Assembly: GCF_000010425.1 (NCBI RefSeq) | Contig: NC_008618.1 | Span: 1,047,946-1,111,945, forward strand | Reading direction: 5' to 3' | DNA length: 64,000 bases | Origin: Bifidobacterium adolescentis ATCC 15703 | GTDB taxonomy: Bacteria > Actinomycetota > Actinomycetes > Actinomycetales > Bifidobacteriaceae | In this document: piece by piece, positions 45,686 through 57,560 of the stretch | Numbering within the stretch: the first letter of the stretch is position 1 | Layout: each line of letters starts with the position of its first letter | Made by a program: the position numbers and the translations under genes | The notes under the pieces: generated by a model | The model's database searches: none | Told to the model about the DNA's origin: nothing | Seen by the model: the letters and a program-made list of their open reading frames with translations, nothing else

Positions 45686-45883
45686 TTATTTGAACAGGTC
45701 AAACAGGCTGAAAGTGGTCTTCCGGTAGACGGTGTTGTACAGCTTGCGCTTGGGATGCAGCCAGCCCATGCCCTTTTTGCCGTATCCTGGAATCAGCGCC
45801 TTTTTGACAGCACGCGTCGCGCGACCTTTCGTACGTGCCGACAGGCTCTTTTTTCAACTTGGCTTCCTCATACCGTATTTCAT
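45686..45883 (-). pseudogene. Small lysine-rich phage-type protein with an in-frame TGA at codon 10
   Basis: AAGGAAATGGGGTCGA precedes the ATG. It reads MKYGMRKPS, then TGA (45856-45854), then 55 codons in the same frame: KKSLSARTKGRATRAVKKAL, IPGYGKKGMGWLHPKRKLYN and TVYRKTTFSLFDLFK. From memory, related small proteins of phages and Gram-positive bacteria have Leu at the TGA site and are otherwise alike. The ATGA overlap with the DUF4429-like gene is intact. Nonsense mutation or recoding cannot be separated here. Confidence 0.6.
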
Positions 45884-46470
45884 TTCGACCCCATTTCCTT
45901 CCTATGCTGTTTCGATTCCGCTATCGACGCGAGCTGTCGCATGTAAAGGCTTTCCGGCGTCTGGTCGTACGCGACCGGCAGAGGATCGACGGACAGCATC
46001 GATTCCACCGCGTCACACAGCCGTCGGAAATCCTTCTCCTGCTTTTTCGTGTAGATCGCGCAGTACGGCGACTTGCGGGACTCGGACGCGCTGCCCAGCA
46101 TCGGCGTATCTCCGTCCAACGTGCGCACGGACAGGCAGAACAGGCCGTTCGCGAAGACCGTCGCCTTGCCGGGTGCCACGTCCACGATGCTGCCGACCGG
46201 TATCTCGGTCCGCGCGAACCCGTACATGGACGCGACGATTCCGCCGCGTTCGATGGTGACCACACCATCACACAGCGTGACCGTGTACCCATAGCCCCTC
46301 GCGCATATTGGCTCAAATCCGACGCCGGCTCTTACCATTTCCTCCGTCATACCCCCATTATCGCTCGGGCCGACGGGTGAAGTGGTGCATGGCAAGTCAG
46401 GCATGACCGTCACGCGTTCTTCGCGTATCTCCATGTCATGCCCCGTCCGTTTAAGGCTGGGATTGCTCAT
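45880..46470 (-). CDS. DUF4429/PH-like domain protein
   Basis: About 196 aa. The middle (GYTVTLCDGVVTIERGG, then ARTEIPVGSIVDVAPGKATVFANGLFCLSV) matches the beta-rich DUF4429/bacterial-PH pattern often seen in phage and plasmid proteins. The C-terminus is helical (DFRRLCDAVESMLS, ESLYMRQLASIAESKQHRKE). The start at 46470 is chosen because its ATG overlaps the upstream stop as ATGA; the stop overlaps the next small gene the same way. Function unknown. Confidence 0.65.
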   Translation of the reverse strand: MSNPSLKRTGHDMEIREERVTVMPDLPCTTSPVGPSDNGGMTEEMVRAGVGFEPICARGYGYTVTLCDGVVTIERGGIVASMYGFARTEIPVGSIVDVAPGKATVFANGLFCLSVRTLDGDTPMLGSASESRKSPYCAIYTKKQEKDFRRLCDAVESMLSVDPLPVAYDQTPESLYMRQLASIAESKQHRKEMGSK

Positions 46471-47084
46471 AGGTCGGATGCCGTCCCGCATGCGGATTCC
46501 CCTTCGCTTTCGATGTCCACGCTCCCCTGCTTGCTTTCATTGGGGCTTGGATCGAGTAGTGGCTGCCGGCTTTTCCTTCCCGCGTCCTTCAGGACCTTCA
46601 CCAGCTCCTTGTTGGCGCGTTTCATGTATTTAAGGCTGCGATTGAGTATCTTGAGCATCTTTTTGGGACTGGCCTTCCCGTCGCCGTCCCCGTCCGCCCC
46701 ACCGTCGCGTATGCCGCGTCTGACCGCTTCGGTTCTTGCCTCGAGTTCGATTATCCGCCTGTTGAGCGCGACGTTGATCCCATACGCGGACGCGAGGTCG
46801 CCATACCGTTTGACGAGCACGTCCTTGCAGAACGCGGTCAGTTTCGCGCATTCCTCCAACACGTAGTCGCCATTCGTGGCCATCGCCATCGACGCCGCCG
46901 CGGACATTCCCGCGCCGCCGGCCGCGCCCAACACGGCCCCGCCGCCGACGATGAGCATCGTCCCGCCGGCCATTCCCGCGCCACCGGCTATGAGGGAACC
47001 ACCGCCAAGGAACGCGAGGCTCGCGCTGGTGAGCGCCGCCCCGTACAATCCGGCGGCCTCGAAGCCGAAGGCGGCGGCGAACAC
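46467..47084 (-). pseudogene. Glycine-rich membrane-region protein, N-terminus removed at an IS21 element
   Basis: 205 readable residues. The first 70 are Gly/Ala-rich and hydrophobic (FLGGGSLIAGGAGMAGGTMLIVGGGAVLGAAGGAGMS), then a helical region (LEECAKLTAFCKDVLVKRYGD, NRRIIELEARTEAVRR), then a charged tail. The reading frame meets a stop just at the IS boundary near 47090, and the Gly-rich part usually sits mid-protein in related proteins, so the gene is 5'-truncated. It is coupled (ATGA) to the DUF4429-like gene. Confidence 0.55.
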
Positions 47085-47266
47085 CGGTGTTTATGGTCAA
47101 ATAAACGTGTACGGCGTCACCACCAAATCTGAACGGCATAAGCGTTCATATTGGACACGGACGGCGGACGGAAATGGCATCGGCGGAAGAAAAGCGCCGG
47201 TGCCGTACGGTTCCTGATAGATTCCCGAGTGCTAACAACCAACACATGGTCCTCGGGAGGAAAGGA

Positions 47267-48730
47267 ATGACGACACCGGTGCGTATTCAACAGAGTATCA
47301 GGCAGCTCGAGACGAAAGGCCTGACGCATACGCAGATAGCTAGGGAACTGGGCGTTTCGCGGACGACCGTGGTCAAGTACGCGACCCGCGATTATTCGCC
47401 CGTTCCGCCGACCGGGGGAACTGCGAGCCGTTCCCTGGTCGCGGGCGAGTACGCGCGCAAGGCCGACGAATGGCTCGAGGCCGACCGGCGCATGCCACGC
47501 AAACAGCGGCACACCGCCCGGCGCGTACACGAGCGGCTCGTGGAGGAATGCGGCTTCGAGGGCAGTTATTCGTCGGTGCAGCGATGGGTCAAGCGCTGGC
47601 GCCAACGCCACCGCGGCGAGGCCGAGGGGTTCAGTGAGCTGGAATGGGCGCCGGGCAGCGCGCAGGTCGATTTCGGCCAGGCCCTGGCCGTGGTCGCCGG
47701 CGTGGAACGGACCGTGCATTTCCTGGTGGTCTCGTTCCCGTACTCGAACATGAGATACGTGGCCGCGCTGCCGGGAGAGACCGCGGAATGCGTGTGCCAT
47801 GGTCTGAACAAGGTGTTCTCCCATGCCGGCATGGTCCCCCGCGTGCTAGTGTTCGACAACGCCACCGGGGTCGGCCACCGCAGGGCCGACGGGACCGTCA
47901 CCCAGACGAGGCTGTTCTCGCTGTTCTGCGCGCACTACGGCTTCGAGACGAGGTTCTGCAACCCCTATTCCGGCTGGGAGAAGGGAAGCACGGAGAACGC
48001 GGTCGGTTTCCTGCGCCGCAACCTGATGGTGCCGACGCCGTCCGCGGAGGGATGGGACCGGCTCACGGACGCGTGGTTGGAACGCTGCGACGAGATCGCG
48101 CGCGGCGTCCACTACCGCGAGGACGTGCCGATCCGGGACCTGTTCGAGACGGACCTCGACCACATGCTCCCGCTGCCGCCGTCCATGTTCGACGCGTGCG
48201 ACTGGCGCGGGGTGAAGGCCGACAGGACCGGAACGGTCACGATCGACTCGAACCGCTACCTCGCGGGCCCGAAATGGCATTCCATGCGTCTCATGGCCGG
48301 CGTGCGGGCCCTGCGGGTCGAGCTGCGTTCCATGGACGGCGAGCCGATCGTCACGTTGGAGCGCAGGTGGGGGCGCAGCCCCGACACCGCGATGGACCCG
48401 CTGTCGCTGCTCGCCATCATCGCACGCAAGCCGCGTTCGTGGGGCGAGAGTCCCATACGCTCCGACTTCCCGGAGGAGACGCGCGTGCTGCTCGACCGGA
48501 TGGAGCCGCGCGAACGCGGCCTGCTGGTCGACGACATCCGCCACGCGGCCGTGGTGAGTGGCTTCCGTGCGGCCGTCATGGCCGTCGTCGAGATCGTCGC
48601 CGCGGGCAGAAGGCCCGACAGGGCCGCGATCGACCAGACGGCCAGGCGGATCGCGCAGGGCGACGGTCCCGAATCGAGGGCCAGGCTCGACACGTACAGC
48701 AGGTTCATGAGGGAGGACGGCGATGAGTGA
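47267..48730 (+). CDS. istA: IS21 transposase IstA
   Basis: 487 aa. N-terminal helix-turn-helix (LETKGLTHTQIARELGVSRTTVVKYA) and an RNase H-like DDE core: Asp in GSAQVDFGQALA, Asp in VLVFDNATGVG, Glu in SGWEKGSTENAVGFLRRN. The start at 47267 has GGAGGAAAGGA just upstream; 47174 is an unlikely earlier start. It overlaps istB by 8 bases. Confidence 0.93.
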   Translation: MTTPVRIQQSIRQLETKGLTHTQIARELGVSRTTVVKYATRDYSPVPPTGGTASRSLVAGEYARKADEWLEADRRMPRKQRHTARRVHERLVEECGFEGSYSSVQRWVKRWRQRHRGEAEGFSELEWAPGSAQVDFGQALAVVAGVERTVHFLVVSFPYSNMRYVAALPGETAECVCHGLNKVFSHAGMVPRVLVFDNATGVGHRRADGTVTQTRLFSLFCAHYGFETRFCNPYSGWEKGSTENAVGFLRRNLMVPTPSAEGWDRLTDAWLERCDEIARGVHYREDVPIRDLFETDLDHMLPLPPSMFDACDWRGVKADRTGTVTIDSNRYLAGPKWHSMRLMAGVRALRVELRSMDGEPIVTLERRWGRSPDTAMDPLSLLAIIARKPRSWGESPIRSDFPEETRVLLDRMEPRERGLLVDDIRHAAVVSGFRAAVMAVVEIVAAGRRPDRAAIDQTARRIAQGDGPESRARLDTYSRFMREDGDE

Positions 48731-49505
48731 GTCGACGGACGCCGCGGCGGGCGGACGCAGGGGCGGGCGGACCGTGAGCAAGTCCACCCCGGACGAGGTC
48801 ATGGAGCTCGCATGCGGGCTGCCGTTGACCAGGAGCGTGCTGCGTTCCGTGGTCGCGGGCGCCACGCCCGGCCAGCTCGGCGTGCTGGCCGACCTGTTCA
48901 GGGCCGAGAACGCCAGCCGGACGGAATCCAGGCGCGCCAGGCTGATCAGGAACGCGGGATTCCCGTGCGTCAAGGGCTTCGACGGATACGACTGGGGCAT
49001 GGCGTCGTTCCCCGCCGACTGGGGGCGCGAGCAGCTCATGGACCTCGGTTTCGTGGACCGGGCCGAGGACCTCGTGCTCTACGGCGACGTGGGATGCGGC
49101 AAGACGCACATGGCGATCGCCACGGGCATGCTGGCGTGCGAGAGGGGCATGCCGGTGAGGTTCTTCACCGCGTCGTCGCTGGTGATGCGTTTGCGGCGGG
49201 CGAGGGACGAGAACCGGCTCGACGCGGAACTGCGCGCGATAGGCCGCGCCAGGCTGCTGGTCATCGACGAGCTGGGCTACCTGCCGATCGACATCGACGG
49301 GGCCAGGCTCCTGTTCCAGGTCGTCGCGGATTCCTACGAGAAGCGGAGCGTGGTGTTCACCACGAACCTGGAGTTCGGACGGTGGGGCGAGGTGTTCGGA
49401 GACGGCGACATGGCCGCCGCGGTCATCGACCGCATCGTGCACCACGGAAGGATCGTCAGGTTCCGTGGCGAGTCATACCGCAACAGCCACTCCCTGATGA
49501 AATAA
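48723..49505 (+). CDS. istB: IS21 helper ATPase IstB
   Basis: 260 aa AAA+ ATPase of the DnaC/IstB type. Walker A YGDVGCGKTHMA, Walker B LLVIDELGYLPID, sensor SVVFTTNLEFGRWGEVF. It assembles on target DNA and activates IstA. The overlap with istA by 8 bases is usual for the family. Confidence 0.93.
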   Translation: MSESTDAAAGGRRGGRTVSKSTPDEVMELACGLPLTRSVLRSVVAGATPGQLGVLADLFRAENASRTESRRARLIRNAGFPCVKGFDGYDWGMASFPADWGREQLMDLGFVDRAEDLVLYGDVGCGKTHMAIATGMLACERGMPVRFFTASSLVMRLRRARDENRLDAELRAIGRARLLVIDELGYLPIDIDGARLLFQVVADSYEKRSVVFTTNLEFGRWGEVFGDGDMAAAVIDRIVHHGRIVRFRGESYRNSHSLMK

Positions 49506-49595
49506 ACGAAAAGAGCGGAACCAACCCGGCCGCCGGTGACGGTGTCCATTTTGAACGCCGATGGTGTTCAGATTAACTGGTGACGACACGCAGAT

Positions 49596-51287
49596 TTATT
49601 TGACGAAAGACATTTGGCAGAAGACGTCGCCGATGTAGTCCGAACGGGCTTTAAGGCTTTTATACTCCTTGTCGTTGTCTCCATGCAGAGGGAAATAGGG
49701 TTTGAACATGACAAGCTCCAAAGCCACGAGCCAGAGCCATTCGCCATTGCCGGCCCCGACGGTCCCGTTGATCTCGTCATACAGGGATTTTCCGTCGAGG
49801 AAGTACCCGTCCCCTTCAACGCCGATGGTCTGCGTGATCCGCCGCGACCACTCATCAAGCCATTTCCCCTTCCTCTCGGCGTGCCTGTCGTGTTTCTCCC
49901 GTTCGATGTCGTACAGGACCTTCTGTCGCATGAGGGAATGGAGCACGCGCGCCTTTTGGGGGTCAAGTTCCAGACAATCAAGGTCCGCCAGCTCGTGTTC
50001 GATGGCGTCCCTCTCGCGCTCCGCATCGTCCTTCCACCTTTCCGCCATCACAGCTTTCGCGTCCACGACGCAGGACACCACGAAAGTTGCGATTCCGACG
50101 TAGTTGACACGCAGCAGGAACACCCGCGCCTTGTCTTCGCCCGCCATCGCGTGCACGGCGGCGTCGGCGATGTCGACACCCACGAACACGCCGCTGGACA
50201 CGGTCAGCATGCGGCGCATGGCCGGGGTTCCCCACGGAAGGACATCCTCGGGGGCGATACGTCCGAGATCCCCAACGCCGCCGATGCCGAGGGCGTCGAT
50301 CTCGCGGGAGAGCCTGCGGCAGAAGTAGAAGGCGCGCGTGACGCACTGGTTGATGACGACGGGCATCGACTGCCTGCCGATCTCGCCCAGGACACCGATC
50401 TCCATACGCAGGTCGAACCGGCGTTCCGTGCCTTTGATGATCCTCCCGTCCGCGTCATGCTCCGCCAGGAACGTCCCGTTGAACATTTTGGACAGCCACA
50501 GTCTGAAGCCCATGCCGTCGGTTCCGGAATCCCTGAAGAACGGCAGGACGGACAGTTCCTTCATGAACGAGAGCAACGGTCCGGGAATTCCCGTCCCCGC
50601 GCCGGCGTTACCGCTCGAACCGGCCATGTCGCTCACCATGTGGAAGAACCATTCGACGGTTCCGAAGACGAGTTTTTCGGGAACGTCCCTGCCCAGATAC
50701 CGCCTATGGTCCTCGGGAATCCGCACGACGACCAGCCTTCCGGCCGTGTCGGTTCCGATCGACAGTCCGGTGAACTGCGTGAAGATCGACGCGGCCAAAC
50801 CACCGATGCCGAAATGGTGGGCGAAATCCCTCAAATGGTGCTGCCGTCCCCCTCCGAAATCCGGAGTGTTCCCGTCCGCCGCCAGCGGATGGACCTTCTC
50901 GAGGTTTCTTATAGCCTCCTTGAGGGAATCGCCTTTGTATCCCTCGGCACAAGCGATTCCGACGACCAGGCGTTCAACCGTTTTGGAACCCCATTCCCCG
51001 GCGCGGTCCAAGGAGAGCTCGCCTACGAACAGGGAATCGACCAGACCGGCGACGACGCCGCTGGCCGCCGCGACGGCATAGTCGACCCTGTCCGCCAGAT
51101 CCAACCGGGGATCCCATTCGATATGGTCGGACAACCGTTCTGGCGTGTCCTGTTCCGTCTGGTCCGGAAATCCATGCGCAGAACTGGTGCCTCCGGATAC
51201 GGGCAGGAGCCGTCGCCGGTCCGGGAACACCAAATCGTAACTGACGATCGGCATGTCTTCATCACCATAATCAAACCGCTGTGCCAT
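49596..51287 (-). CDS. Large conserved protein of unknown function, 3' end cut by IS21
   Basis: 563 aa, of which the last few codons and the stop lie inside the IS end, so the natural C-terminus is lost. Blocks that look conserved: DRVDYAVAAASGVVAGLVDSLFVGELS (a possible membrane or amphipathic segment), GGGRQHHLRDFAHHFGIGG, FTQFTGLSIGTDTAGRLVV, VSDMAGSSGNAGAGTGIPGPLLS and WLSKMFNGT. The second half has helical charged segments. I recall similar uncharacterised proteins in Firmicutes; no catalytic motif is evident. It heads a minus-strand cluster with the genes at 45686-47084. Confidence 0.6.
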   Translation of the reverse strand: MAQRFDYGDEDMPIVSYDLVFPDRRRLLPVSGGTSSAHGFPDQTEQDTPERLSDHIEWDPRLDLADRVDYAVAAASGVVAGLVDSLFVGELSLDRAGEWGSKTVERLVVGIACAEGYKGDSLKEAIRNLEKVHPLAADGNTPDFGGGRQHHLRDFAHHFGIGGLAASIFTQFTGLSIGTDTAGRLVVVRIPEDHRRYLGRDVPEKLVFGTVEWFFHMVSDMAGSSGNAGAGTGIPGPLLSFMKELSVLPFFRDSGTDGMGFRLWLSKMFNGTFLAEHDADGRIIKGTERRFDLRMEIGVLGEIGRQSMPVVINQCVTRAFYFCRRLSREIDALGIGGVGDLGRIAPEDVLPWGTPAMRRMLTVSSGVFVGVDIADAAVHAMAGEDKARVFLLRVNYVGIATFVVSCVVDAKAVMAERWKDDAERERDAIEHELADLDCLELDPQKARVLHSLMRQKVLYDIEREKHDRHAERKGKWLDEWSRRITQTIGVEGDGYFLDGKSLYDEINGTVGAGNGEWLWLVALELVMFKPYFPLHGDNDKEYKSLKARSDYIGDVFCQMSFVK

Positions 51288-51580: not shown

Positions 51581-52195
51581 TCACTGCAGGGCTTTCACCT
51601 CGTCGAGTAGGGTCTGGTAGGTTGTCGCCTGCTCGTAGCGGGCTCCGTCGGCGAGGTCCAGGTCGTTGAACGGGCGCTTCGTGCAGGCGATCTTGCTGTT
51701 CTCGATTCCACGCAGGTCGAACGACTCCAAGGTGCCCTTGGTCTCGGCGACGAAGAACAGACGCTTAAGGCCACTGTCGTCGCGGAACGCCACCGCCCAG
51801 TCGGGCGCGTAGTTGCCCACGGGGGTCGGTATCTGGAATCCTCGAGGCAGCTTCGCATACACCGCGACCTCCGCGACGCCGGCGAATTCTAGGCCGAATT
51901 CGCCGTGCGTGCGCAGGTTATCGTGGATGACGATGCAGCCGAACACGGCATGATCGCCTTGCAGTATTCTTCCCGGTGTGAGACCGGGATGTCTTTCCTC
52001 GAGTTCCGTCCAGATGCCGGCTCGGTCTGCAAGGTCGCGCAGTGACTGGCTGTCCTCCGTCAGAAGCGTCACGTTGCAACCTCGCCCGCTTCTGGTGTCG
52101 TAGATGTCGGAGAATATCAGGATGTTTCCGCTGTTCTCCATGTAGCCGATGGTTTGTTCTAGATGCCTCGGCACCAGTATGCCCGCCAATCCCAC
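51581..52195 (-). pseudogene. C-terminal remnant of a type III restriction endonuclease (Res subunit)
   Basis: The last 110 residues are clear: NLRTHGEFGLEFAGVAEVAVYAKLPRGF, IPTPVGNYAPDWAVAF and LFFVAETKGTLES. PDW plus ETK is the PD-(D/E)xK nuclease centre of type III Res proteins. The helicase part (more than 600 residues) is absent. The upstream 90 residues (NSGNILIFSDIYDTRSGRG...) do not look like Res; the frame stays open further 5' to about 52250 without a clear start. No Mod methylase is present. It kept a terminator, which points to 5' loss. Confidence 0.7.
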
Positions 52196-52531: not shown

Positions 52532-54628
52532 TCAGCGTTCGGTCATTTCGACGAGGTCCAGTTTGAAAATGCCGTTGTCAGGATTGTATTTGTCCACTGT
52601 TGCTTTGATGTGGACGTTCTGTCCTTCGCGCACGAAGGCGGGAATGCCGACCGAACCGTCGTGGAAATCGCTCCAAGTGATTCCTTCGAATCTGAAACTT
52701 GGTCCATTAACGCTTTCCGTGCTGTAATCACCTGCGTATACCAGCGTATCGTCAAACAGGTAACGTGGATGCTTATCGTTGGGTATAATGCTTGCAATGT
52801 TGCCGTCGAATTCAATAGTGCGTCCCTTGTATTTTTCGGCGAATGCGGCAACGGACGAATCGAAAGGATCTTTCACTCCAAGCAGAGCAGCGAATTCCGG
52901 ATTGTTGGCAGCGGTGATGATGCCGTTGCTGTCGGCCTGCTGCGGTTTTTGCTGTTGTGCAGGTTCCTTTTCCCGGACGGTCAGGGTGACTTCGCCATCC
53001 GTCATGGACTGGTTGGCTTCGGTGACGGTCCATTCCTCACCATTCTGTACAGCGGTTTTCACTGTTGCCGTCTGGTCGCTGCCGTCTCCCCCGTCAACCA
53101 AGAACTTGTAAGACAGACTCTTCCCATCAAGTTCCGATGTCACCTCTTTCACGGAACGGTTCTTCAGCGAATTCGTGTTGACCTTCTCGAACGAAGGCGT
53201 GGACGGCTTGTTGTTATCTGCAGAATCGTCGGAATCGGTCGTATGCGAATATGACGGGGTGGTCGCCGGTTTGTCGTTCTTCGAATCTTCGGATGACAGG
53301 CTCATGCAGAATAAGGCAATGAGAAGCAGCACAAACGCGGCCACACAGCCGATAAGGATCGTACGTTTCCGCTTGTCCTCTAATAGGGCCGCAAAGCCAT
53401 CGGATGCCGTTGCCGTATGCGTTTCAACTTCATGGTGATCGGAATACCCGTCGGACTGTGCTTGTTTCTTATCGGAAGGCCAATGCGGTGTAGATGAAAC
53501 GGCGCTTTCCGTCATCGCGACGGTTGGTTCGGAATCGGCGTCATTCGGGGTAACGGGAATTGTGACCGTCGAAGCCGGTTCCTCCGTCCGCACTTCCGCC
53601 CGTTCTTTTGAAACGATTTCCGCGGCGGGTTCCGGTTCCGACGAAACGTTTTCTTTCGTGGACTCCGGTTCCGTCTTCTCCGGAACGATTCTCGTATCGG
53701 TAATCGAATCTGCCTTCTTTTCCGCGATTTCCGTCTGCTTATTCGATTCAGTATCCGAGCCAGCGTTCTTGCGATCGCCAGGGAACGTCATACGCGGCAT
53801 ATCTTCCGGAGGAATCGGCATGGTTCGCTGTGATGGGGAATCGTCGTACAACGGTTTGTTCCAAACCTGTGGCGTATGGGTGGCGTGCCTTTCAGAATCC
53901 TGTTCCTGCACCCGCTTCTTTTCCTCATATGCCGAGCGTGCCTCTTCGATTGAGTCTCCGAGATTTTGCGCGGCGCGACTGGCTTCGTTTTTCGCTTTGG
54001 ACAGTGCTTCTTTCGCCTTGGATTTACCGGTTTCGAGTTTGCCCTCCAAATCGTTATCTTTCGCGAACTTCTCAGCGTTTTTCCTGGCTTTGGAAAGAAG
54101 ACCACCCAACGTCGTCGGCTGCTGGACTGGATATTGAGGCATTGAATACTGTGGTGCCGGCTGGGCTTGCAACGGCATGGGCGCCGACGATTGCGGCGTT
54201 GCCGGATACGGTTGAGACGGCATCGGATATTGCGATTGAACCGGCTGGTTTTGAGGAGGCATGGCAGCAGGGAATTGCGATGCCGGCGGATACTGTTGAG
54301 ATGCCGGATATTGATTTGGCATAGGCTGCGCATACGGTTGCGCCGTAGGCATGGCCCGTCTGCCGGACGGCCGGTTTTTCAACGTCCAAGCTATACGGTC
54401 AAGCAGCAAATCCACGTCGCCTATAGCATATCCGCCCATATACGTAGAGGTGAAGGAGTGCCGCTCGACCTCTTCGGCAGACAACCCATATCCGTTACGT
54501 AAAGTGTCGGCGCATTTTCCGAGGAACACGTCCACTTCCGCCACTTTGTATCCTTCCGCGAAATTTACTACCGGAAGTTTGACTGACTGAAGCTCTTCAA
54601 TAGTAATCGTCCCAGTTGGATAAATCAT
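52532..54628 (-). CDS. DivIVA-like N-terminus, transmembrane segment and extracellular DUF4839 domain
   Basis: 698 aa. Residues 1-85 contain two DivIVA-like short domains (VNFAEGYKVAEVDVFLGKCADTL and the YAIGDVDLLLDRIAWTL segment). Then come a Pro/Gln/Met-rich stretch (about 95-175), a Lys/Ala/Glu helix (LLSKARKNAEKFAKDND...), a long acidic disordered region, one membrane segment at about 430-450 (TILIGCVAAFVLLLIALFCMS), a PASTA-like part (VKEVTSELDGKSLSYKF) and a C-terminal DUF4839 domain (NPEFAALLGVKDPFDSSVAAFAEKYKGRTIEFDG). Probably a surface protein tied to growth poles or septa. GAGGG precedes the ATG. Confidence 0.75.
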   Translation of the reverse strand: MIYPTGTITIEELQSVKLPVVNFAEGYKVAEVDVFLGKCADTLRNGYGLSAEEVERHSFTSTYMGGYAIGDVDLLLDRIAWTLKNRPSGRRAMPTAQPYAQPMPNQYPASQQYPPASQFPAAMPPQNQPVQSQYPMPSQPYPATPQSSAPMPLQAQPAPQYSMPQYPVQQPTTLGGLLSKARKNAEKFAKDNDLEGKLETGKSKAKEALSKAKNEASRAAQNLGDSIEEARSAYEEKKRVQEQDSERHATHTPQVWNKPLYDDSPSQRTMPIPPEDMPRMTFPGDRKNAGSDTESNKQTEIAEKKADSITDTRIVPEKTEPESTKENVSSEPEPAAEIVSKERAEVRTEEPASTVTIPVTPNDADSEPTVAMTESAVSSTPHWPSDKKQAQSDGYSDHHEVETHTATASDGFAALLEDKRKRTILIGCVAAFVLLLIALFCMSLSSEDSKNDKPATTPSYSHTTDSDDSADNNKPSTPSFEKVNTNSLKNRSVKEVTSELDGKSLSYKFLVDGGDGSDQTATVKTAVQNGEEWTVTEANQSMTDGEVTLTVREKEPAQQQKPQQADSNGIITAANNPEFAALLGVKDPFDSSVAAFAEKYKGRTIEFDGNIASIIPNDKHPRYLFDDTLVYAGDYSTESVNGPSFRFEGITWSDFHDGSVGIPAFVREGQNVHIKATVDKYNPDNGIFKLDLVEMTER

Positions 54629-54774: not shown

Positions 54775-57126
54775 TCAGTCTTCTGTATATCCGAAATGCT
54801 CTTTGACTTTCTGATATGTCGTTTTGTCGTTGAGCATGTAGGCAGCCAGCGGGACGGTTGTCATCCCTTTCTCCCAATAGCCATCATCAACATCCGTCAC
54901 ACTTCTCTTCCATGCAACGCCTATAAACACTTCTTTATTGGAATCGAGCTTCTGCTTTAGTTCTTCGGATTGCCATGATGCATCAGATACGGGTGTCGGA
55001 ATGCCATCGGCCATCACTTTGAAGTTCTTCATTGGCACCGCAGTGGACGTGCATTTTCCTATGCCAACGAATCCGCATCCGGCAATGTAGCAGTAAACCG
55101 TGTCTCCAACTTGAACGTTGTAGATCGATTTTCCGCTGCCGCCAAGGCTCGCGGACAAGAACCCGTATTTCAAGGCATCAGGCCAACTTCTTTCCGCGTA
55201 GCCAATCGTGAATTCGCGTCCTTTTTCGTTTTTGAAAAAAGCTTTTTCTTCATCGTCGTCCCAGCCGCCTGCAATATTCTTGATGTCATTCGGATTCCAA
55301 ATGTCACTGGCCATTTTCAAATAAATCTCAGCTCGGTCAACAATGCTCTGCCTATCGAAATCGGGAATATCTCGGAAGCCATATTTGGCAACGACTGTCG
55401 AAAGAAAACTCGGGTTTTTCGAGTATGCCGTACTACTCAATGCTTGAGCAAGAATGTTGTCTCCCGCATACTTTTGAACCTTCTCCGAGTATTTCATTGC
55501 CTGGTAGCTTCTGTTCTTGTCACGAGTGAGCAGAATCAGGTTCCCGATCAGATTGCGAGTGGACTCGAAATCCTCAAGATCCGCAAAACCATCTTTGTAA
55601 TCCTCGTATTTGTCGGGAAGAATATGTTCGATATCGTAAGTGTTTCCTTGTCGCTTACGGTCGACGTATTCTTCAAAGTGCGACGGATTGCCCATCAGCA
55701 CGTTCACATAGGAAGTGAAGCGTGCAAGAATGTGCAGCATATACCGTTTGGAGAACTGATTCAGACCAAAACGGGTGATTCCTTCAACGGACATGCCCAT
55801 ACGACGAAGCGCACGAACATAAACCATACCAATTGTTTTGCAATCTGCATTGCGAATGTCCTGCATTACATGGAACAACTGGTATTTATTCGTATTCCAG
55901 TTGGCCTTTTTGAAATTCAAAATTCGGATGGTAGCGAAGTCATCTACGAATTTCGCCGTCATCCGTATCTTCTTTTGTATTATGTCATCAGTGTCATCAT
56001 TTTTGATGGCGGCAATGGCGAGCATGGTTTGATAGGTCAAGTCCCGGTTTGCGTTATAGAAAACCTCTTCATATCCCGTCGTGAATTTACTGCCGTAATC
56101 CATCATTCGTAAATAGACGTCGGTAACACGCGTCATTTCGGTAAGAACAAAATTCTTGTAGTCATTCGGCTTGGCAAGCCCCATCACGGTACGGGCATTA
56201 TTGCTTACCCAAGCATGGAATTTGTCCCCAAGAAGCTCATAGTCCTCATCTTTGGCACCGCGTTTGGTATCGCGCATACGGTTGGCGTACTTTGCGCGAA
56301 GCCAGATGGAGACAAACTCCACATCCTGCGTGTTCACCATACCGCTCGTATCATAGGAGGACGCGTTCTTGATACGGCTGATATTGCTCTGCCACTCCTG
56401 GTTGACCTTAATGCGATCCTCTTCAGCAACATGCTGAATGACGAAGGCCTTCATCATTTCAGCACTATTCAAGCTCAATCCGCGGTCGTTCATAGTAAGG
56501 AATATGGTGTGCGCTTCGTCTTCAGATGGTGTGTCGATTTCTAGAAGAAGCACTTTCTCTATCAGCCAGTTAATAAAGTAAGGTAGCGCTTCTCCTTTCA
56601 ACTCATCCGGGAAAAGATCCTCAATATCCTGATATCGATCAAGCATATTCTGCACACTCTCACTCATGGGCAAGTAGGTTTGATCTTTCTGTAACAGAGC
56701 TTGCATGCAAGGCTTGCGATCCTCCACGTCGATATTGAAGCTTTTCTTACCGAAAGCCTTTGAAAAAATCATGTCATCCAACGGAACAATAAGATCCTCG
56801 TCCTCAACTGTTTCCTTCTGCAGGTTGTTCAAGTAAATGATGAGCAACGTCAACGAGGTCAGACGCTGCTGACCATCAATAAGCTTCTTTATGGATCCAC
56901 CGGTGCAAATGATGCAACCCATGTAATAAAACCCGTAGTCCATGACCTCTTCTGGCGTATCATGATCATCCGGTTTATAGAATTCCTCAAAAGTGTTTTG
57001 AAAGTCAGCAAGCATCTGCTCAATTTGCTTCCTTCCCCACCGATATTCCCTTTGGAAATAATCAATGGTGTACTTTCGGCCACTCAGAATCGTTCTAAGC
57101 GTGTCTGTTTTATCGATTTTCTCCAT
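54775..57126 (-). CDS. GmrSD-like DUF262-DUF1524 protein with PUA/EVE-like C-terminus
   Basis: 783 aa. DUF262 (ParB-like NTPase) shows FQREYRWG at residues 24-31 and IDGQQRLTSL at 83-92. DUF1524, the His-Me finger-like nuclease, shows YDIEHILPDKY near 497-507, STRNLIGNLILL and the Lys of DKNRSYQAMK. Beyond about residue 640 is a separate beta-rich domain (RSWPDALKYGFLSAS, VGDTVYCYIAGCGFVGIGKC) resembling PUA/EVE-like readers of modified bases. Proteins of this family restrict phages with modified DNA. The start at 57126 is preferred over 57237, where the frame does not resemble the family. Lower GC than core genes. Confidence 0.85.
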   Translation of the reverse strand: MEKIDKTDTLRTILSGRKYTIDYFQREYRWGRKQIEQMLADFQNTFEEFYKPDDHDTPEEVMDYGFYYMGCIICTGGSIKKLIDGQQRLTSLTLLIIYLNNLQKETVEDEDLIVPLDDMIFSKAFGKKSFNIDVEDRKPCMQALLQKDQTYLPMSESVQNMLDRYQDIEDLFPDELKGEALPYFINWLIEKVLLLEIDTPSEDEAHTIFLTMNDRGLSLNSAEMMKAFVIQHVAEEDRIKVNQEWQSNISRIKNASSYDTSGMVNTQDVEFVSIWLRAKYANRMRDTKRGAKDEDYELLGDKFHAWVSNNARTVMGLAKPNDYKNFVLTEMTRVTDVYLRMMDYGSKFTTGYEEVFYNANRDLTYQTMLAIAAIKNDDTDDIIQKKIRMTAKFVDDFATIRILNFKKANWNTNKYQLFHVMQDIRNADCKTIGMVYVRALRRMGMSVEGITRFGLNQFSKRYMLHILARFTSYVNVLMGNPSHFEEYVDRKRQGNTYDIEHILPDKYEDYKDGFADLEDFESTRNLIGNLILLTRDKNRSYQAMKYSEKVQKYAGDNILAQALSSTAYSKNPSFLSTVVAKYGFRDIPDFDRQSIVDRAEIYLKMASDIWNPNDIKNIAGGWDDDEEKAFFKNEKGREFTIGYAERSWPDALKYGFLSASLGGSGKSIYNVQVGDTVYCYIAGCGFVGIGKCTSTAVPMKNFKVMADGIPTPVSDASWQSEELKQKLDSNKEVFIGVAWKRSVTDVDDGYWEKGMTTVPLAAYMLNDKTTYQKVKEHFGYTED

Positions 57127-57560
57127 AACTCTTTGCCCCATCAATTTGTTTTTCGGCTTTAAAATCTTCGGTGAATTCAGCCGAATCCATATGACCTCGT
57201 CGCAGACATTGATACGACATCTGGAAGTCATATTCACGATTGTTTCCGGAAACTATTATCCTCCGGCTCAGCCCGATAAAGGGAAACGACACGATGGTAA
57301 TTCCGTCGCCGTTAGCAAACATCATACGGTTTTGCCATTTGCCAGCCAACGCTGCAGGGTTGCGGATTCCACTACAATGCAGCATTGGTTTCGTTCGATT
57401 GATACGGAAACGCGACCAACGACCGGCACACTGGCTCAGGGAGATGGGGTAAAGGATGACGAAGACTTCCAAGGATGCGGAAAACCTATGAGACCGGTCT
57501 CTCAATCGCCATTCATGCAAACCGGCGATTCAGTCCGCAGCACCATGCAAGCGGAATACA
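57127..57560. other. Region without a supported gene
   Basis: About 430 bases between the DUF262 gene and the acyltransferase gene. An open minus-strand frame (57520-57110) exists, but it overlaps the DUF262 start and shows no family pattern. No tRNA, repeat or clear terminator is seen. Confidence 0.5.

What the first reader, a model, noticed from the sequence alone, without database searches (positions are those of the whole stretch)
45686..51287. Unknown four-gene cluster interrupted by an IS21 element
Four minus-strand genes lie in series: a 563-aa protein with conserved GGGRQHH and GSSGNAGAGTG blocks, a glycine-rich protein, a DUF4429/PH-like protein and a small lysine-rich protein. The last three are linked by ATGA overlaps, so they form one functional unit. 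I know relatives of some members only as uncharacterised phage- or island-type proteins. Their coupling, island location and neighbouring restriction-type genes make them a candidate undescribed defence or conflict module, here inactivated.
Basis: inference. Interest (0 to 1): 0.6.

Follow-up and report, generated by a model that had tools for sequence, protein, structure and literature searches.

The report
Bunzi-like fusion gene broken by IS21
What looked like a new four-gene cluster is mainly one gene, a relative of a phage-defence protein joined to a membrane-type tail, which a jumping gene has cut in two; intact copies exist in other gut bacteria.

Summary
The ORFs are real, but they are not a four-gene unit. 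The 563-aa protein and the "glycine-rich protein" are the two ends of ONE gene: in 7 of 7 close congeneric relatives the same sequence is a single 781-814-aa ORF. Here IS21 (47088-49612, 2525 bp) splits it; about 57 codons are missing, there is no target duplication, and two further copies of the IS lie in the genome. The N-part matches BnzB of the Bunzi anti-phage system (PADLOC 2e-43). The C-part is a glycine-rich, membrane-type domain related to the separate PDC-M09A gene (99.1%, 7e-19). Of 80 loci fetched, 40 are such fusions; others pair a BnzB-like gene with separate partners. The PH-like gene (DUF4429-related) and the lysine-rich gene (prematurely stopped here) were found at none of the 80. 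So the defence guess is partly right, "undescribed four-gene module" is wrong, and this copy is broken. The confidently predicted BnzB-like domain had no significant match among solved structures. Function rests on homology and neighbourhood; nothing was tested at the bench.

The parts
49613..51287 (-). Native N-terminal part (558 codons and one base) of a one-gene BnzB-like/glycine-rich fusion; conserved GGGxQHHxRDFxHH and HMxSDMAGSSG motifs
   Evidence: PADLOC BnzB 2e-43; same ORF as the C-part in 7 of 7 congeneric relatives; alignment
49596..49612 (-). End of the 563-aa ORF with its stop, supplied by the IS end, not native
   Evidence: IS edge by terminal inverted repeat and by comparison with two other copies
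47088..49612 (+). IS21-family element, 2525 bp, one of three copies in this genome (identical over the 2491 bases searched); no target duplication here
   Evidence: NCBIfam hits, inverted repeats, copies, other copies with 5- and 6-bp target duplications
47174..48730 (+). istA transposase, 518 aa
   Evidence: NF033546 1e-82
48723..49505 (+). istB helper ATPase, 260 aa
   Evidence: NF038214 3.4e-72
46467..47087 (-). C-terminal part of the same gene: glycine-rich membrane-type domain plus tail; no native start
   Evidence: PDC-M09A 0.0028 for the fragment and 1.4e-11 for the B. moukalabense protein
45880..46470 (-). DUF4429-like (PH-like) gene, ATGA-coupled to the fusion gene's tail; not found beside BnzB-like genes elsewhere
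45686..45883 (-). Small lysine-rich gene with a premature in-frame stop; intact copies exist in this genome and in congeners
   Evidence: PHROG 10934 8.8e-24
51581..52195 (-). 204-aa frame with the C-terminal endonuclease domain of a type III restriction enzyme, probably a remnant
   Evidence: PF19778 8.4e-23; PADLOC REase_III positions 890-987 of 989
54775..57237 (-). GmrSD/DUF262-HNH type protein, 820 aa
   Evidence: PF03235 1.3e-28 and PF07510 1.3e-15

Best explanation
The locus is the remains of a single-gene member of the BnzB (Bunzi) superfamily. The intact protein (781-814 aa in congeners) joins an all-helical BnzB-like domain to a C-terminal glycine-rich membrane-type domain, the domain that relatives encode as a separate gene (PDC-M09A) and that canonical BnzA probably carries in its C-terminal half. 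Shown: the one-gene anatomy, the homologies, the break by IS21 with loss of about 57 codons, and a distribution consistent with horizontal transfer. Inferred: the protein acts as a self-contained anti-phage unit. The BnzB-like domain senses infection, or works as an enzyme on an unknown target (it has a conserved His/Asp-rich core), and releases the glycine-rich tail into the membrane, which arrests or kills the infected cell. The window copy cannot do this. The downstream DUF4429 and lysine-rich genes are co-located accessory cargo, not core parts.
For: Anatomy: (7 of 7 strong congeneric relatives carry both halves in one ORF). Against five relatives pN is 0.22-0.30 in the N-part and 0.20-0.26 in the C-part, pS 0.60-0.81 and 0.65-0.77, so both halves were under constraint until recently. 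Family: PADLOC BnzB 2e-43 for the window gene, 2.8e-46 for the B. moukalabense protein; blastp of Vibrio plasmid BnzB (PADLOC 1.3e-177) against the B. moukalabense fusion 28%, 1e-26. C-part: profile comparison with separate PDC-M09A-type genes 99.1%, 7e-19, 46 columns; with BnzA 89.9%, 1.7e-6. Gene layouts: fusion 40 of 80, separate glycine-rich gene 11 by strict motif, other partners; a TerB gene lies between in L120 and L126. Fusion label clustered on the tree: 4 changes, shuffled mean 26.2. Mobility: near-identical copies in Bifidobacterium pullorum and Olsenella profusa, of different families. Setting: a DUF262/GmrSD gene lies 14-15 bp upstream of the fusion in 5 of 80 loci, all five close relatives of each other.
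Against: No function was tested. The best BnzB stretch covers about half of the model (150-375 of 504). No separate BnzA appears in the rows shown for the 7 window proteins scanned (for one of them 25 of 28 families are shown), and no TerB domain was found in the two fusions scanned; the BnzA genome search rang nowhere, controls included, so it is uninformative. BnzA against the separate glycine-rich genes gave no match (4.5%). The glycine-rich part is not modelled (pLDDT under 50 over 601-674 and 682-698), so membrane insertion is an inference from composition and hydrophobic stretches. The His/Asp core is absent from a two-gene Bifidobacterium homologue (P0002), so it cannot be essential to the whole superfamily. 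Its invariance in 71 rows is partly built in, since the scan that found them searched for those motifs. The B. pullorum copy could be a contaminant contig (the assembly that holds it has about 300 contigs and 3% contamination), which would weaken the transfer argument and leave 6 of 7 congeners.
Confidence: 0.6

Rival explanations
1. A defence or conflict operon in which the DUF4429 and lysine-rich proteins are working partners of the glycine-rich membrane protein.
For: ATGA overlaps join the fusion's tail, the DUF4429 gene and the lysine-rich frame, which suggests co-translation in this lineage.
Against: Neither gene was found at any of 80 BnzB-like loci. The lysine-rich gene sits behind different genes in congeners and between repressor and integrase in two phages examined. 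The DUF4429 gene is rare.
Confidence: 0.12
2. The IS insertion has created a working two-gene form: the N-part and C-part are now separate proteins, as in relatives that encode the glycine-rich domain separately.
For: Separate-gene layouts exist naturally; the split falls between the two domains.
Against: About 57 codons are missing; they correspond to a piece that holds the only C-part stretch of the B. moukalabense protein above my hydropathy threshold (604-622). The C-part has no native start; the insertion looks young, with IS copies identical over 2491 bases.
Confidence: 0.05
3. The fusion is not defence but a general envelope-stress or membrane-maintenance protein that shares domains with Bunzi.
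For: No bench test; TerB and glycine-rich membrane domains also occur outside defence (own knowledge); by eye, several one-gene loci lack an obvious defence neighbour.
Against: Patchy presence (13 of 112 congeneric genomes, own genome and weak matches included), near-identical copies in two families, more PADLOC families among its neighbours than in control regions (suggestive only).
Confidence: 0.2

Closest known systems
Bunzi (BnzA + BnzB)
   Same: N-part is homologous to BnzB; the glycine-rich C-part resembles the C-terminal half of BnzA.
   Different: One gene, not two; no TerB domain found; the N-terminal part of BnzA and the first 140 or so positions of the BnzB model are not matched in the best stretch.
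PDC-M09A/B (PADLOC phage defence candidate)
   Same: C-part matches PDC-M09A in six fusions scanned (3.2e-18 to 7e-7); two-gene Bifidobacterium (L023) and Lactiplantibacillus loci pair a BnzB-like gene with PDC-M09A.
   Different: No PDC-M09B match at E up to 1 in three fusions; both domains are in one chain.
GmrSD / DUF262-HNH type IV-like restriction proteins
   Same: Neighbours: in the window the 820-aa protein, and 14-15 bp upstream of the fusion in 5 of 80 loci.
   Different: Not homologous to the fusion; the window's GmrSD is only 24-25% identical to those neighbours over 264-282 aa, and two frames lie between it and the fusion.
Phage lysogeny-module lysine-rich small proteins (PHROG 10934 and kin)
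   Same: The fourth 'gene' belongs here (67 of 50,697 phage records).
   Different: Chromosomal, and prematurely stopped in the window.

Membership tests
Bunzi | BnzB homologue | tested here: met
   PADLOC PDLC03834 2e-43; B. moukalabense fusion against canonical Vibrio BnzB 28%, 1e-26. Best stretch covers 150-375 of 504 model positions.
Bunzi | Separate BnzA gene next to BnzB | tested here: not met
   No BnzA among the rows shown for 7 window proteins (for one, 25 of 28 families shown), while the same library recognises BnzA of Vibrio at 3.8e-177. The 13-genome search rang nowhere and shows nothing.
Bunzi | TerB domain in the system (listed for Bunzi in PMC10952713, passage seen) | tested here: inconclusive
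   No Pfam TerB hit in the fusions P0001 and L063; TerB was found beside BnzB-like genes in L120 and L126. But the canonical Vibrio BnzA did not hit Pfam TerB either, so the test has no working positive control.
Bunzi | Protects against phages | not testable with these tools
   No bench data; the founding paper is not held.
PDC-M09 | PDC-M09A (glycine-rich) component | tested here: met
   Fusions 1.4e-11, 2.6e-9, 3.2e-18 and 5.4e-9, 3.6e-14, 7e-7; window fragment only 0.0028.
PDC-M09 | PDC-M09B component | tested here: not met
   No PDC-M09B match at E up to 1 for the window gene or three fusions; two-gene relatives match its C-terminal end weakly.
IS21 family | istA and istB, terminal inverted repeats, short target duplication | tested here: met
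   target duplications at the other two copies only.
DUF4429 | Pfam PF14472 match | tested here: inconclusive
   No direct Pfam hit; related to a DUF4429 protein.

The most novel reading that the evidence does not exclude
The BnzB-like domain is a new all-helical fold that serves as the shared core of a large, little-described family of membrane-acting phage defences. It is combined with interchangeable partners: a glycine-rich domain fused in one chain, a separate TerB plus glycine-rich pair, or a coiled-coil membrane protein. The one-gene form is a complete single-protein defence system.
Probability: 0.4. Interest if true: 0.62.

Novelty: new variant of a known kind. Interest (0 to 1): 0.42.

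Why it matters
In the six papers whose Bunzi passages I saw it appears as an entry in lists, tables or surveys of defence systems; one lists its mechanism as unknown (PMC12926258). Natural one-chain fusions suggest which part of Bunzi-like systems works with which: the glycine-rich domain is the regular companion of the BnzB-like domain in this branch. A single protein of about 800 aa from a gut bacterium would be a simple object for testing whether BnzB-like proteins sense phage and whether the tail permeabilises the membrane. It also corrects the reading of this locus: the gene is a pseudogene by insertion, and an annotation that lists two proteins here would mislead.

Tried and rejected
Rejected: four-gene unit; prophage structural origin; a metal-enzyme claim from the His/Asp core, left as a guess, because one two-gene homologue lacks it and I could not measure distances (no model files in the Python box).

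Fold searches: whole fusion model (pLDDT 70.5) and the BnzB-like domain alone (pLDDT 89.8, pTM 0.79) gave no Foldseek match at E up to 0.001 in PDB; the domain gave none in BFVD. VIA-align best Z was 8.3 for the C-terminal helices and 6.2 for the domain, both within the range the tool calls common for helical models. A missing match does not prove a new fold.

PADLOC on neighbours: I listed neighbours for 20 of 34 one-gene loci (14 fell out through my own ORF filter) and gave 72 of the 75 listed ORFs (dropped: two that were the fusion itself and one more). For two of the 20 loci (L128, L130) the script had centred on a wrong ORF, so most of their 5 ORFs are not nearest neighbours. Result: 80 families at 1e-10, the commonest (DUF262-type) in 4 members. 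Control: 72 of 107 ORFs from 12 regions gave 5 families, one member each. Controls were Bifidobacterium only, and the tool does not give the number of members with any hit, so this is suggestive, not a test.

BnzA across 13 genomes: no hit, controls silent too. Paper searches for Bunzi, BnzA and BnzB, PDC-M09 and glycine zipper with TerB listed no title or abstract that describes a one-gene form; this covers only the open papers held. I saw passages of PMC10952713, PMC12926258, PMC13379101, PMC11206119, PMC11305592, PMC11514479 and PMC12482510, no whole text.
Full report
Setting. The window is part of a one-contig 2,089,645-base genome, positions 1047946-1111945. From memory, that length is that of Bifidobacterium adolescentis ATCC 15703; no call names it. 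Around the finding lie a TenA-type protein, a DUF262/GmrSD protein, a protein with DUF4839 and DivIVA-type motifs, and the C-terminal fragment of a type III restriction endonuclease.

The observation. The four ORFs and the IS21 element exist, but the boundaries need correction. The IS is 2525 bp, 47088-49612, with terminal inverted repeats starting TGT. Two further copies, identical over the 2491 bases searched, lie elsewhere in the genome. They carry target duplications of 5 bp and 6 bp; the window copy carries none. The 563-aa ORF runs 17 bases into the IS, and the glycine-rich frame is open up to the other IS edge without a native start.

One gene, not two. A search of 112 congeneric genomes found matches in 13, the window's genome included. 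Seven others were strong; the remaining five were weaker. In all 7 strong ones, the 563-aa protein and the glycine-rich protein align with one ORF of 813, 811, 814, 814, 812, 804 and 781 aa (alignment). One of the seven (G065, about 300 contigs, 3% contamination) is near-identical to an Olsenella copy and might be a contaminant contig; six would remain. Compared with the B. moukalabense copy, residues 573-629, about 57 codons, are absent from the window. Missing DNA and no target duplication fit a deletion next to the IS, or recombination between two IS copies. Both remaining halves show constraint against five relatives, the C-part slightly more, with synonymous changes near saturation.

What the gene is. 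The N-part matches PADLOC's BnzB model at 2e-43; the B. moukalabense protein gives BnzB 2.8e-46 and PDC-M09A 1.4e-11. As a positive control I fetched a Vibrio plasmid locus whose two genes match BnzA and BnzB at 3.8e-177 and 1.3e-177; its BnzB aligns with the B. moukalabense fusion at 28%, 1e-26. The C-part profile matches the profile of separate glycine-rich genes at 99.1%, 7e-19, over 46 columns, and a small BnzA profile of four sequences at 89.9%, 1.7e-6. BnzA against the separate glycine-rich genes gave nothing (4.5%), and glycine-rich composition could inflate such scores, so the BnzA link is only probable.

Layouts. A genome-collection scan with the congeneric alignment found 89 relatives and kept 80. 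The scan used two motif patterns, so it favours members with those motifs. My tally: 33 with the glycine-rich motif in the same ORF behind the BnzB-like domain (one of them, L096, with its frame broken further upstream); 6 with a long C-terminal tail without the strict motif, 5 of which match the C-part by blast; 1 fusion split by a frame break; 11 with a separate motif gene; 24 with another downstream gene; 2 without an intact ORF; 2 truncated by the contig; 1 short and alone. Four of the 24 (L111, L118, L125, L138) have the same layout of a 250-aa and a 330-345-aa gene, three of them with a blast hit to the separate glycine-rich protein, so 24 overstates the other-partner group. Five of the 24 printed (L094, L095, L101, L106, L113) look like coiled-coil proteins with a hydrophobic end, by eye. 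In L120 and L126 the gene between is TerB by Pfam (L099 weakly, below cut-off). In Bifidobacterium L023 and L024 a shorter BnzB-like gene is followed after 8 bases by a 468-aa glycine-rich gene; that of L023 matches PDC-M09A at 1.1e-74.

Tree. In a quick tree of 78 rows the window groups with B. moukalabense (support 96) inside a 12-row fusion set (100). The fusion label needs 4 changes against 26.2 in shuffles. Some rows are long-branched and the tool warns of two long branches meeting among the Bunzi rows, so the deep order is not used. Near-identical copies in B. pullorum (Bifidobacteriaceae) and Olsenella profusa (Atopobiaceae) point to transfer, unless one assembly is contaminated.

Genes three and four. 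The PH-like gene is in 2 of 112 congeneric genomes and 2 of 394 class genomes, its own genome counted each time; it is related to DUF4429 through L142. The lysine-rich gene is in 21 of 112 congeneric genomes, with a second copy in the window's genome, behind differing genes, some DUF262-like by eye, and in 67 of 50,697 phage records. In phiEf11 and TPW22 it lies between repressor and integrase. The window copy is stopped at codon 10. Neither gene was found at any of the 80 loci, whose flanks reach at most 6 kb. The ATGA overlaps do show local coupling, which I count as evidence for the operon rival.

Structure. The BnzB-like domain, folded from the window's own sequence with 70 relatives, is mostly helical with pLDDT 89.8 and pTM 0.79. 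No library match was significant. Of 15 conserved positions counted, 13 are identical in all 71 rows, among them H150, H151, D154, H157, H158, H216 and D220 of the gene, with the selection caveat above. A two-gene homologue (P0002) lacks the corresponding residues, judged by eye.

Mechanism. I commit to a membrane-acting, abortive type of defence carried by one polypeptide: BnzB-like domain as sensor or enzyme, glycine-rich tail as membrane effector. Shown: homology, anatomy, and the break in the window; the distribution is consistent with mobility. Inferred: every step of action. Bunzi's mechanism is listed as unknown in a 2026 review (passage of PMC12926258). The founding Millman et al. 2022 paper is not held and was not read.

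Verdict. A real but corrected observation: a new architectural variant of a known defence family, broken in this genome.

Noticed in passing
L063, L064, L065, L068, L069 (upstream gene, 14-15 bp before the fusion): A DUF262/GmrSD-type gene directly precedes the fusion in 5 of 80 loci, all close relatives, suggesting a two-gene defence operon.
   Followed up: partly
L045, L048, L051, L052 (congeners); own genome C1:1212815-1212979: The small lysine-rich gene follows differing cargo genes; in these four loci the gene for D-Tyr-tRNA deacylase (tested in L045; by eye in the others) lies about 1.2 kb behind it: a possible integration hot spot in Bifidobacterium.
   Followed up: partly
L139:2177-4378: In an alphaproteobacterial MAG the BnzB-like gene is followed by a kinase-type gene matching PADLOC PD-T4-6 (6.1e-91).
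   Followed up: no
L162:3141-4529 (Citrobacter plasmid): A BnzB-like gene has an IS1 gene just upstream and no BnzA named in the incomplete gene table; 491 plasmid records hold a match to a related BnzB-like protein.
   Followed up: no
window 51581-52195: Probable remnant of a type III restriction endonuclease: only the C-terminal domain is left.
   Followed up: no
window 52532-54628: 698-aa protein with DivIVA-type motifs and a C-terminal DUF4839 domain, between the GmrSD gene and the restriction remnant.
   Followed up: no
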